From positions 1 to 42,055 of the forward strand of contig JAFVOP010000009.1 of the NCBI GenBank assembly GCA_017505745.1: a DNA stretch of 42,055 nt. The letters run 5' to 3'. This DNA is from Clostridia bacterium. GTDB taxonomy: Bacteria; Bacillota; Clostridia; Oscillospirales; CAG-272. How positions within the stretch are numbered: the stretch's first letter is position 1; each line of letters begins with the position of its first letter. The notes under the pieces were generated by a model. The model was not told where the DNA came from and ran no database searches. It worked only from the letters and a program-made list of their open reading frames with translations. The translations under genes were made by a program, and so were the position numbers. Below, piece after piece: positions 14,246 to 16,501 of this stretch.

Positions 14246-14274
14246 ATTATAGCATACTTCCAAAAAATTGTCAA
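14246..14274 (-). promoter_or_regulatory. Consensus sigma-A promoter of the kinase-like gene
   Basis: Minus strand TTGACA (14274-14269), 17 nt, TATAAT (14251-14246). The leader is about 85 nt. Confidence 0.9.
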
Positions 14275-14534: not shown

Positions 14535-14984
14535 TCAAAGGTCAGCCAAATTGAAAATTGGCTTCCCCTTTTGCTTGGCACATTTATACATTTGATATGC
14601 ACCGCCCCAAGTGCGATTTACATAGACAATCATCAAATCGGCCTTTTCCGCCATATATCTGTTGCGATATACAAGTGCATATTTAGGTGGCTTGTCTTCG
14701 ATGGGGGGATAAAGAATCGCATCGTATTGGTTTTTTTGCTCTTCCAAACACTTTTTTTGATATGCGGCAGTTATATAAGGCGTTACAAAAACCAACGAAA
14801 CCTTTGGATTTACTTTTTGATATTTTTTGCAACAAGTATACGCAAAGCGGTCAAATGCGCCATAGCCGCCCAAATACAAATCGGCAGACCCGTCTCCGAT
14901 TTTGTCTTCCAAAACCACCAAGAAACGGCGCTCGTACTCTTTCGTCGACACAAAGTCTGCATGTCCGCAAAATGTGATTATCAT
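14535..14984 (-). CDS. SLOG-family nucleotide-binding-like protein
   Basis: A 149-aa protein beginning MIITFCGHADF, then LYLGGYGAFDRFAYTCCKKY, VSLVFVTPYI and a final ADLMIVYVNRTWGGAYQMYKCAKQKGKPIFNL. This order of short beta strands and a glycine loop is that of the SLOG superfamily (YpsA/LOG-like Rossmann fold), which binds nucleotides or ADP-ribose-like ligands. Its start overlaps the stop of the ribbon-helix-helix gene (ATGA), so they are translated together. Partners of this sort occur in stress and toxin-antitoxin-like settings; no effector activity can be read from the sequence. Confidence 0.75.
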   Translation of the reverse strand: MIITFCGHADFVSTKEYERRFLVVLEDKIGDGSADLYLGGYGAFDRFAYTCCKKYQKVNPKVSLVFVTPYITAAYQKKCLEEQKNQYDAILYPPIEDKPPKYALVYRNRYMAEKADLMIVYVNRTWGGAYQMYKCAKQKGKPIFNLADL

Positions 14985-15160
14985 GATTCGAAATCGGATT
15001 TTGAAGATTGAATATTCTCAAGTGCATAATCACAGCATTGAATAATAAGACTATTCAACGACACTTGCGCCTCTTGTGCAAGGCTTTCAAGTTTTTGAAC
15101 AAGCTCCACCGGCATCCGAAATGTTTTATTGATATATTGCGGCTTTTTTACACTAAACAT
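14981..15160 (-). CDS. Ribbon-helix-helix DNA-binding protein
   Basis: A 59-aa protein: QYINKTFRMPVELVQKLESLA forms the strand and first helix, VSLNSLIIQCCDYALEN the second. It is the likely transcriptional regulator of its own operon with the SLOG gene, to which it is fused by an ATGA overlap. The ATG at 15160 has GGAG 8 nt upstream; the in-frame GTG at 15169 overlaps that site. Inverted ATATTTTACAATATT-type sites lie just upstream (15180-15195, 15236-15248), the expected place for autoregulation. Confidence 0.82.
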   Translation of the reverse strand: MFSVKKPQYINKTFRMPVELVQKLESLAQEAQVSLNSLIIQCCDYALENIQSSKSDFES

Positions 15161-15248: not shown

Positions 15249-15291
15249 CTCGTATTATTTGCGGCGATTCAATAAGTATCTACTATCATTC

Positions 15292-15329
15292 AAAAACAAA
15301 AAAGTGCGCGCAACCGAGGTCACACGCAC
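15292..15329 (-). terminator. Intrinsic terminator of the structured RNA
   Basis: A 12-bp stem with several G-U pairs (GTGCGCGCAACC, 15304-15315, with GGTCACACGCAC, 15318-15329), followed on the minus strand by TTTTTTGTTTTT. Confidence 0.85.
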
Positions 15330-15516
15330 CGAAAAATGCAAACCCCGATTGTTGCTACACAAAACTTAACAAGCTCACAGGAAGTCCTGCTCATCCGTCA
15401 AGTGGAATTTGCATTTTTGCCAAATTCATGATTGACGGATATGCACGGCAATAAAACTCTCTATAAAAATATAGAGAGGCTTCTCACAGAGCTTGTTATC
15501 AAAATTTTGTGTAGCA
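15298..15516 (-). ncRNA. Candidate independently transcribed structured RNA, about 220 nt
   Basis: A consensus promoter (15522-15550) points leftward into a stretch with no credible reading frame, and an intrinsic terminator closes it. The minus-strand RNA folds as a four-helix junction. The closing helix pairs 15505-15517 with 15352-15364 (13 bp) and 15489-15497 with 15368-15376 (9 bp). Inside are a perfect 9-bp hairpin with an AAAA/UUUU loop (15457-15478), a 9-bp plus 6-bp hairpin (15393-15440) and a small hairpin (15378-15389). The apical loop of the second hairpin (15408-15418) is exactly complementary over 11 nt to the single-stranded tail (15332-15342), a possible pseudoknot. Length and long closing stem would also fit 6S RNA or the raiA-motif RNA; I cannot decide between these and a new class. 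Confidence 0.75.
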
Positions 15517-15521
15517 AGTAT

Positions 15522-15550
15522 ATTATAACACAGTTTAAAAAAACTGTCAA
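15522..15550 (-). promoter_or_regulatory. Consensus sigma-A promoter of the structured RNA
   Basis: Minus strand TTGACA (15550-15545), 17 nt, TATAAT (15527-15522). The predicted start, about 15515-15516, coincides with the first base of the closing helix. Confidence 0.9.
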
Positions 15551-15587
15551 GTGAAATTTTAGAACTTCTCACGCCTCCCCCCTGTGT

Positions 15588-15685
15588 GTCATCTCTGAGA
15601 AGGCTCGCGTTCGTTTCACTCACGGCTCACCGGTCGAAGCTTTTTGCAGTCGAACGAAGTGAGCGGCAAAAAGTCGAGTTGCAAG
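15588..15685. repeat. Repeat A, copy 1 (98 bp)
   Basis: Matches 16404-16501 with one difference in 98 bp, in direct orientation. It contains an internal inverted repeat (CTTTTTGC / GCAAAAAG). No reading frame is conserved between copies. Confidence 0.95.
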
Positions 15686-15785
15686 ACAAAGCTGCTTTGC
15701 CTTGCAACGAAGAGAGCTACGAAGGATTTTGATATACTTTTTCAGAGGAATGATACTTCCATTTGGCAAGTGATAGCGCATCCCT

Positions 15786-15904
15786 CCCCGCGTCATCCTG
15801 AGCGAAGCCGAACTTTCGGCTTGCCGAAAGCGCGAGGCTTGCCGAGCGGGATCTCGCGGGGACGTTGTAGGAATGTTACTTTCATTTGGAAAGTTATAGC
15901 GCAT
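15786..15904. repeat. Repeat B, copy 1 (about 119 bp)
   Basis: Direct repeat of 16276-16393 with a handful of differences. It begins CCCCGCGTCATCCTGAGCG, contains the perfect hairpin CTTTCGG-CTTG-CCGAAAG and ends TATAGCGCAT. Its 3' part also occurs alone at about 15749-15782. The GTCATCCTGAGCG motif reappears inverted at about 16043-16058. Such GTCATCCTGAGCGAA elements are intergenic repeats in many Clostridia. Confidence 0.93.
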
Positions 15905-16275
15905 CATATTGTAGATCCCACTGCGCGCCGCCTGTCGGCTTCGCTTGTGGTTTTGCTCCATTCCACGCGTACCGCGTTTTATTGCGCAAAACTTCGACTC
16001 CGCACGCCGAGGCCATGCGATCCTCGTTTCCGTTTCGCGTCCTCGCGTGCTCCGCTCAGGATGACGCGTAGAGTGCATGTGCGGTGGTTTTCCGTAGGGA
16101 GACCGTCCTCGTTTTCGTTTCCCATTCTAGCGTGCTTCGAGCATTGCTTGCAATGCGGGGAGTGCGCGGCAACGCCGAGCATCTCCTTCTCATAGATGAC
16201 GCACGGGACGCGATGGCGATTGCACTACGGAGAGCCACCTCACAAACACTTTCCGTGTCATCCTGAGCGTCATCC
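15905..16275. other. Gene-free spacer within the repeat nest
   Basis: No supported gene. It includes an inverted copy of the repeat-B head (GCTCAGGATGACGCG, about 16044-16058) and a fragment near 16256-16275 (GTCATCCTGAGCGTCATCC). The frames open in several directions but none has a ribosome site or recognisable product. Confidence 0.6.
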
Positions 16276-16393
16276 CCCCGCGTCATCCTGAGCGAAGTCG
16301 AACTTTCGGCTTGCCGAAAGCGCGAGGCTTGCCGAGCGGGATCTCGCGGGGCGTTGTAGGAATGTTACTTTCATTTGGTAGGCTATAGCGCAT
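16276..16393. repeat. Repeat B, copy 2 (about 118 bp)
   Basis: See 15786-15904. Together with repeat A the order is A-B-spacer-B-A, all in direct orientation. Confidence 0.93.
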
Positions 16394-16403
16394 TTCTCCC
16401 CGC

Positions 16404-16501
16404 GTCATCTCTGAGAAGGCTCGCATTCGTTTCACTCACGGCTCACCGGTCGAAGCTTTTTGCAGTCGAACGAAGTGAGCGGCAAAAAGTCGAGTTGCAA
16501 G
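16404..16501. repeat. Repeat A, copy 2 (98 bp)
   Basis: One mismatch to 15588-15685. Sequence similarity continues loosely past the right end of both copies (TTTTGAT.TAC.TTTTCA). Confidence 0.95.

What the first reader, a model, noticed from the sequence alone, without database searches (positions are those of the whole stretch)
15298..15550. Independently transcribed structured RNA with consensus promoter, cloverleaf fold and terminator
A perfect TTGACA-N17-TATAAT promoter fires into a stretch without a credible gene. The predicted transcript start coincides with the first base of a two-part closing helix (13 + 9 bp) that encloses three further hairpins, and a strong terminator with a T-run ends it. 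Each element could be chance, but together they define a discrete RNA of about 220 nt. Size and closing stem are compatible with 6S RNA or the raiA-motif RNA; otherwise it would be new.
Basis: partly seen in the sequence, partly recalled or inferred. Interest (0 to 1): 0.8.

Follow-up and report, generated by a model that had tools for sequence, protein, structure and literature searches.

The report
New gene-switching RNA leader, gut Clostridia
The predicted RNA is one copy of a large, apparently undescribed family of switch-like RNA leaders that sit in front of surface and accessory genes in gut Clostridia and look able to fold either to stop transcription or to let it through.

Summary
In detail: perfect TTGACA-N17-TATAAT promoter, a 218-nt RNA folding far better than shuffles (z -9.1), and an intrinsic terminator. 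No Rfam family matches, 6S and raiA included.

It belongs to a family. A covariance model from relatives finds it in 104 of 295 genomes of the order, 87 of 341 of the class, and only in the window's own genome (7 matches) among 348 of the phylum.

It is a gene leader rather than a free-standing RNA: 121 of 145 copies precede a Shine-Dalgarno and ORF, 66 of the 121 within 15-25 nt of the T-run.

Two mutually exclusive, covarying structure sets make an expression platform. Tail strand d pairs either with the terminator's 5' half (antiterminator) or with internal strand b (anti-antiterminator); b can instead pair locally with strand a. In 20 separately chosen loci, cis pairing beat permuted partners for the antiterminator (0 of 10,000 permutations as good) and b:d (1 of 10,000).

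Best reading: a new riboswitch-like transcription attenuator family with unknown trigger, in front of lipoproteins, BspA-type LRR proteins, SLOG-like and other accessory genes. Nothing was measured; signal, direction and pseudoknot geometry are inferred or unknown.

The parts
15522..15550 (-). promoter: TTGACA (15550-15545), 17-nt spacer, TATAAT (15527-15522), TG before -10
   Evidence: family consensus TTGACA...TGTGnTATAAT over 144 copies
15298..15515 (-). leader RNA, predicted +1 (15515) to end of T-run
   Evidence: R1 model match 15299-15515, 68.6 bits, E 6e-14
15503..15515 (-). P1 5' strand (closing helix, 13 pairs)
15354..15366 (-). P1 3' strand
15489..15498 (-). P2 5' strand
15367..15376 (-). 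P2 3' strand
15457..15478 (-). P3 hairpin (CTCTCTATATTTTTATAGAGAG)
15433..15442 (-). P4a 5' strand (pairs with 15392-15401)
15392..15401 (-). P4a 3' strand
15421..15427 (-). strand a (GAATTTG): local partner of b (inferred ON state)
15404..15418 (-). strand b (AAAAATGCAAATTCC): pairs with a locally, or with d as anti-antiterminator (inferred OFF state)
15332..15351 (-). strand d (CAATCGGGGTTTGCATTTTT): pairs with b, or with the terminator 5' half as antiterminator
15311..15328 (-). terminator 5' arm and loop that can pair with d in the antiterminator
15303..15330 (-). terminator T2 stem-loop; T-run follows to 15298
14984..15160 (-). first ORF downstream, 59 aa, Arc-like ribbon-helix-helix (PF03869, E 2.8e-4)
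14535..14984 (-). second ORF, 149 aa, SLOG-like; 54% identical over 148 residues to the ORF directly behind the same leader in L168

Best explanation
The RNA is the 5' leader of the downstream gene(s) and works as a transcription attenuator. Supported by comparative sequence: (1) it starts at the base of closing helix P1, at a near-fixed distance from a strong sigma-70-type promoter; (2) its tail strand d can pair either with the 5' half and loop of terminator T2, forming an antiterminator, or with internal strand b, leaving T2 free; (3) b can instead be held by local strand a, and in short members a has a further alternative partner c; (4) the exclusive sets are a:b + antiterminator versus b:d (+ a:c) + T2. 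Inferred: a:b + antiterminator is ON (RNA polymerase reads through into the gene) and b:d + T2 is OFF; b:d coexists with P1/P2 as a pseudoknot; some signal acting on the P1-P2-P4 domain shifts b between a and d. The signal is unknown; a small molecule and a protein are about equally plausible to me.
For: Short-form alignment of 45 sequences: OFF set (with P1) 93.1% of cells paired, 18 of 43 pairs with changes on both sides, covariation score reached by 0 of 500 shuffles, paired cells at most 56.7% when partners are slid 1-3 columns; ON set (with P1) 94.4%, 13 of 34 pairs, 0 of 500, at most 58.4% when slid. Column 83 of b covaries with column 57 of a and with column 171 of d. Long-form alignment of 71, including the window: b:d 97.9% of cells paired, 7 of 15 pairs with double changes; antiterminator 97.6% and 98.9% in its two helices; a:b 84.5%. 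Test on 20 loci picked from matches of a model that holds neither b:d nor the antiterminator as base pairs: antiterminator -18.98 vs permuted -15.02 +/- 0.70 kcal/mol (0 of 10,000 as low), b:d -18.07 vs -15.31 +/- 0.67 (1 of 10,000). Divergent tandem copies 2 and 3 in L193 changed b, d and T2 and kept both pairings, while cross-pairing with the consensus drops. 121 of 145 copies are followed by a Shine-Dalgarno and ORF, 66 of 121 within 15-25 nt and 95 of 121 within 50 nt of the T-run. The d+T2 stretch alone folds as antiterminator in 91 and as T2 in 52 of 143, so the two are close in energy.
Against: No transcript, termination or ligand data. In the window copy d+T2 alone folds as T2, not antiterminator, and the gene starts 138 nt after the T-run with weaker promoter-like sites between, so control of these two genes is less certain than elsewhere. 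24 of 145 copies had no ORF by my rule, several because the contig ends or the SD is weak, and 2 of the 121 ORFs counted look spurious. Outside P1 and the switch strands only 8 alignment columns are at least 90% conserved in short members, fewer than I would expect of a metabolite aptamer (recalled expectation). P2 varies in length, so whether b and d can meet while P1 and P2 stay closed is unproved. The 145 copies were pre-selected for b:d complementarity, which inflates that helix; avoids this, though its loci were hand-picked from match listings. Weaker controls: number of double-changed pairs was reached by 3 of 500 shuffles and 2 of 500, further pair types by 4 and 8 of 500; sliding by +1 still gave 9 double-changed pairs against 10. 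In short members permuted antiterminator partners sometimes did as well as cis. Shuffles and permutations ignore relatedness.
Confidence: 0.82

Rival explanations
1. Same attenuator, but the sensor is a protein (an RNA-binding regulator or antitermination factor recognising P1 or the junction) rather than a small molecule.
For: P1 sequence is conserved beyond pairing in short members (5 of 12 pairs never vary); few conserved non-helical residues; targets are unrelated accessory genes.
Against: No candidate protein was looked for; P1 does vary with compensation.
Confidence: 0.35
2. No sensor: a passive attenuator whose b:d / antiterminator race sets a fixed or transcription-speed-dependent read-through.
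For: Antiterminator and terminator are close in energy; little conservation in the apical domain of short members.
Against: Alternative strands are maintained by compensatory change, which seems costly for a constant leak.
Confidence: 0.2
3. Free-standing small RNA with a constitutive terminator; downstream genes are incidental.
For: Own promoter and terminator; tandem copies with no gene between them.
Against: Short distance to an SD and start codon in most copies examined; d pairs with the terminator arm with covariation.
Confidence: 0.07
4. Trans-acting RNA network: b of one copy pairs with d of others.
For: b and d are similar across copies; three leaders keep d+T2 without b (L040, L044, L050).
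Against: Pairing is better within a copy than with permuted partners; the start of L050's gene resembles that of L015, which has the full leader (by eye), so tail-only copies look like remnants.
Confidence: 0.04
5. 6S RNA, raiA-motif RNA or another known Rfam family.
Against: No gathering-level hit in the window or at the element in 15 family loci; only chance-level lines at E<10 on the stretch; 6S-model match elsewhere in the genome; several copies per genome.
Confidence: 0.01
6. Mobile or cassette-like unit in which promoter plus RNA travels with genes.
For: Many dispersed copies before unrelated accessory genes; tandem copies.
Against: A k-mer search of 105 stretches behind the genes gave no widely shared sequence; no exact tail-pattern match in viral contigs, no plasmid match for one short-form copy. 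Presence/absence at matched sites was not tested.
Confidence: 0.06

Closest known systems
Transcription-terminating riboswitches with anti-antiterminator logic (such as SAM-I; recalled)
   Same: 5' leader, aptamer-like domain, one strand shared by mutually exclusive antiterminator and sequestering helix, terminator just before the RBS
   Different: no Rfam match; the sequestering helix joins an internal hairpin to the tail as a putative pseudoknot; ligand unknown; targets are unrelated accessory genes
c-di-GMP riboswitches of Clostridia (recalled)
   Same: several dispersed copies controlling surface proteins
   Different: no Rfam match
T-box leaders (recalled)
   Same: terminator/antiterminator leader common in Firmicutes
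   Different: no Rfam match; amino-acid genes are not prominent among the targets listed
6S RNA (RF00013)
   Same: about 200 nt, long closing stem
   Different: no model hit here; a separate weak 6S-model match in the same genome; multi-copy; in front of genes
LOOT RNA (RF03000)
   Same: best weak cmscan line for the stretch
   Different: 17.2 bits vs cut-off 46.4, E 0.5, on the opposite strand: chance

Membership tests
6S RNA (RF00013) | covariance-model match at or above gathering score | tested here: not met
   no hit in window or at E<10 on the element
raiA-motif RNA and all other Rfam 15 families | covariance-model match | tested here: not met
   15 family loci gave only RNase P, three tRNAs and one twister-P5, none at the element
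Transcription attenuator (cis-regulatory leader) | located between promoter and RBS of a gene | tested here: met
   121 of 145 copies have SD + ORF; promoter consensus over 144; 19 of 20 with a -10-like box and 16 of 20 with an SD-like motif in the second set
Transcription attenuator (cis-regulatory leader) | intrinsic terminator with a mutually exclusive antiterminator, both conserved | tested here: met
Transcription attenuator (cis-regulatory leader) | measured change of read-through | not testable with these tools
   no transcription or RNA-seq data available
Riboswitch (metabolite-binding) | aptamer with conserved binding-pocket residues | tested here: inconclusive
   only 8 columns at least 90% conserved outside P1 and switch strands in short members; long members not tested for this
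Riboswitch (metabolite-binding) | direct ligand binding that changes expression | not testable with these tools
   needs in-line probing or in vitro transcription
Ribosome-mediated attenuator | conserved leader-peptide ORF | tested here: not met
   an SD-preceded ORF of 8+ codons starts inside only 36 of 145 copies; the sequence of such ORFs was not compared
T-box | Rfam T-box match | tested here: not met

The most novel reading that the evidence does not exclude
An undescribed riboswitch class of the Clostridia, sensing a shared physiological signal such as a second messenger, with nine or more copies in some genomes acting as a global switch for surface-exposed and accessory genes; its sensing domain starts at +1 and is read out by a four-strand switch with a pseudoknotted anti-antiterminator.
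Probability: 0.35. Interest if true: 0.87.

Novelty: new member of a known kind. Interest (0 to 1): 0.68.

Why it matters
A multi-copy regulatory RNA family found in 104 of 295 sampled genomes of the window's order and 87 of 341 of its class, with no match in Rfam 15, appears to control surface proteins and accessory genes in gut and rumen bacteria known mainly from metagenomes. If its signal can be found it would expose a regulon shared by very different species, and the two-state covariation makes the mechanism testable in a tube with one template and a handful of mutants.

Tried and rejected
Rfam at gathering score and at E<10: no family. 6S: rejected. Leader peptide: an SD-preceded ORF in only 36 of 145 copies. 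Two of six exact TTTTTCGGTGCG sites in the window genome (C38, C97) have no promoter or R1 match beside them and are taken as chance.

Rows dropped. 182 tail-pattern matches; 20 fell below the complementarity score of 9 and were dropped: 14 show no leader, the other six are L040 and L050 (tail only), L044, L055 and L108 (decayed, divergent or truncated) and L113 (a full copy missed by the AAAA anchor). Of 162, 10 had no recognisable P1 3' end (152 left) and 7 more had no P1 of 8 pairs (145 left). Alignment A2 uses 45 of 55 short members; A3 uses 71 of 90 long ones (82 had an intact terminator end). The protein survey used 119 of the 121 first genes; two short, probably spurious ORFs (L010, L130) were left out and one start (L119) was moved downstream. 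My first count of antiterminator versus terminator folds (100 and 43 of 143) counted local hairpins of d as antiterminator and is replaced by 91 and 52.

Phage records: one partial hit in an unverified 'Bacteriophage sp.' scaffold, not taken as proof of phage carriage. Literature: searches listed no paper that I recognised as describing this family; PMC8040213 and PMC11109978 were seen only as term passages, all others only as search listings; supplementary motif tables could not be read, so an unnamed candidate there cannot be excluded. Not pursued: a search for a protein partner; the second promoter at 14274; presence/absence of the leader at matched gene sites.

Full report
What was checked. 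The minus strand of 15298-15550 holds a 12-of-12 sigma-70-type promoter with TG before the -10, a strongly folded transcript and an intrinsic terminator, as described. The transcript alone (15515-15298) folds at -91.6 kcal/mol, 9.1 standard deviations below dinucleotide shuffles. cmscan finds no Rfam family in the whole window and four chance-level lines at E<10 on the stretch 15250-15600, two of them on the other strand. The genome carries a separate match to the 6S model on another contig, 36.7 bits, below the cut-off of 46.4.

It is a family. blastn of the element finds matches in 36 of 60 genomes, own included, up to 10 matching pieces per genome; some copies give two pieces. One of them (SVSL01000014.1, Oscillospiraceae bacterium SIG668) has the length and match position of contig C44 of G001, a genome of the window's own genus, so the window is probably from an uncultured Oscillospiraceae-like bacterium. 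That the 'class' of the genome searches is Clostridia is inferred from these labels. The pattern has no exact match in viral contigs; a short-form copy gave none in plasmids; one partial hit fell in an unverified phage-labelled faecal scaffold that carries a short-form copy.

Distribution. Model R1 (45 short-form sequences; P1, top of P2 and T2 as pairs; b:d and antiterminator not modelled as pairs) matches the window copy at 68.6 bits, E 6e-14. It finds 104 of 295 genomes of the order at E<=1e-4, 87 of 341 of the class at E<=1e-5 and 1 of 348 of the phylum at E<=1e-5, that one being the window's own genome; all three counts include the own genome. The phylum run doubles as a false-positive control; of its genomes without a match 20 are listed (11 from the same order or class, 9 only from the phylum) and 327 are not. 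At most 8 or 9 candidates per genome were scored in these runs, so copy numbers are lower bounds. The window genome has 7 matches.

Anatomy. From 182 tail matches I kept 145 copies with b:d complementarity and a P1 helix: 90 long (at least 186 nt, the window's type) and 55 short. The promoter is part of the unit: consensus TTGACA-N17 with TGTGnTATAAT over 144 copies, and P1 starts 6 nt after the -10 box in 111 of 152. P1 is paired in 84 to 88 of 88 long members at each of its first 12 positions, with several compensatory pair types (P1 was located by best helix, which favours pairing). P2 is variable in sequence and length in short members.

The switch. Column-pair scanning of the short-form alignment brings out b:d as the longest helix, then a:b, a:c, d with the T2 arm, T2 and P1, beside shorter chance helices. 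These fall into two exclusive sets. OFF: P1, a:c, b:d, T2; 93.1% of cells paired, 18 of 43 pairs with double changes. ON: P1, a:b and the antiterminator; 94.4%, 13 of 34 pairs. Covariation scores are reached by 0 of 500 shuffles and fall when partners are slid; the number of double-changed pairs was reached by 3 of 500. The a:c helix is the weakest at 77.2% of cells. In the long form, with the window included, b:d has 97.9% of cells paired and 7 of 15 pairs with double changes, the antiterminator 97.6% and 98.9% in its two helices, a:b 84.5%; there the count of double-changed pairs for the ON set (10) is hardly above that at slide +1 (9), although paired cells fall from 93.7% to 45.6%. Position 83 of b covaries with both a and d, as expected of a strand that changes partners.

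Controls for bias. b:d was used to select the 145 copies. I therefore took 20 other loci, chosen by hand from the R1 match listings across genomes, cut segments by position only, and compared cis pairing with permuted partners: antiterminator -18.98 versus -15.02 +/- 0.70 kcal/mol (0 of 10,000), b:d -18.07 versus -15.31 +/- 0.67 (1 of 10,000); 19 of 20 had a -10-like box at the expected place and 16 of 20 an SD-like motif within 45 nt after the T-run. R1 contains the sequence consensus of these strands, though not their pairing, and permutation does not remove relatedness. In locus L193 three leaders stand in tandem; copies 2 and 3 have changed b, d and T2, keep b:d (-17.7, -17.2) and antiterminator (-15.3, -18.3), and pair worse with consensus partners (-2.9 to -11.5), while copy 1 is consensus-like and cross-pairs well. 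Cis beats permuted partners for b:d within both forms. For the antiterminator within forms the effect is smaller because the terminator loop hardly varies: long form -19.25 against a permutation minimum of -19.06, short form -21.39 against a minimum of -21.54.

Direction. Folding d+T2 alone gives the antiterminator in 91 of 143 copies and T2 in 52; the window copy folds as T2. So sequestering d in b:d should favour termination, and holding b in a:b should favour read-through. This is inference. Whether b:d forms while P1 and P2 are closed, as a pseudoknot with P2 or P4 folded back, is also inference.

Targets. 121 of 145 copies are followed by a gene with a Shine-Dalgarno; 66 of the 121 start 15-25 nt after the T-run, 95 within 50 nt, 10 beyond 100 nt, the window among these. 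Of 119 first genes scanned, 16 match BspA-type LRR_5, 7 a zinc ribbon, 5 SLH, 5 HTH_3, 4 a Listeria-Bacteroides repeat, 3 collagen (families overlap). A lipobox-like start occurs in 27 of 121 against 37 of 790 other ORFs of the same loci (the background includes spurious ORFs). LRR_5 domains are common in these genomes (53 domain matches in the own genome), so enrichment for that family was not established. In the window the first ORF is Arc-like and the second a SLOG-like protein 54% identical to the protein that directly follows the leader in L168.

Sensor. In short members only 8 columns outside P1 and the switch strands are at least 90% conserved: one A in the P1-P2 junction, GG before b, one U after b, and the AGCA linker before d. 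That is thin for a metabolite pocket and leaves protein, small molecule or kinetic control open. No leader peptide stands out.

Verdict. I file it as a new family of a known kind.

Noticed in passing
window 14246-14274 (minus): A second perfect TTGACA-N17-TATAAT promoter with TG before the -10; terminator-like hairpins lie just before it at 14361-14324.
   Followed up: no
window 15600-16500: Repeat-like intergenic segments; the same stem-loop CGGCTCACCGGTCG followed by AAGCTTTTTG occurs at 15623 and 16439.
   Followed up: no
L047, L064, L101, L138, L169 and others, first gene after the leader: A recurring cysteine-rich protein of about 60-70 aa (...GNGEQGFECCCDECDYFLLCFPEFD...); no Pfam match for the L101 member.
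   Followed up: partly
L009, L010, L046, L168 and window 14535-14984; ORF start in L206: A SLOG-like family (MIITFCGH... and similar) recurs behind the leader; only weak Pfam matches (DNA_processg_A, YpsA) for the two members scanned singly.
   Followed up: partly
L193:753-1310; also L010, L032, L056, L065, L081: Tandem leaders, three in a row in L193.
   Followed up: partly
L040, L044, L050: Leaders that keep only strand d and the terminator behind a different promoter; possible remnants or recombinants.
   Followed up: partly
L189:2075-2230 (MT835845.1): A short-form leader in front of a lipoprotein-like ORF in an unverified 'Bacteriophage sp.' scaffold from human faeces; may be bacterial DNA.
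   Followed up: partly
L001:1501-1713 (G000:C23): Match to the 6S model at 36.7 bits, below the gathering score: possibly this genome's divergent 6S RNA.
   Followed up: no
L124:1174-1245: Type-P5 twister ribozyme in a family locus.
   Followed up: no
L017:931-1284: RNase P RNA divergently next to a leader copy; a very similar leader and first gene occur in the window genome (L034).
   Followed up: no
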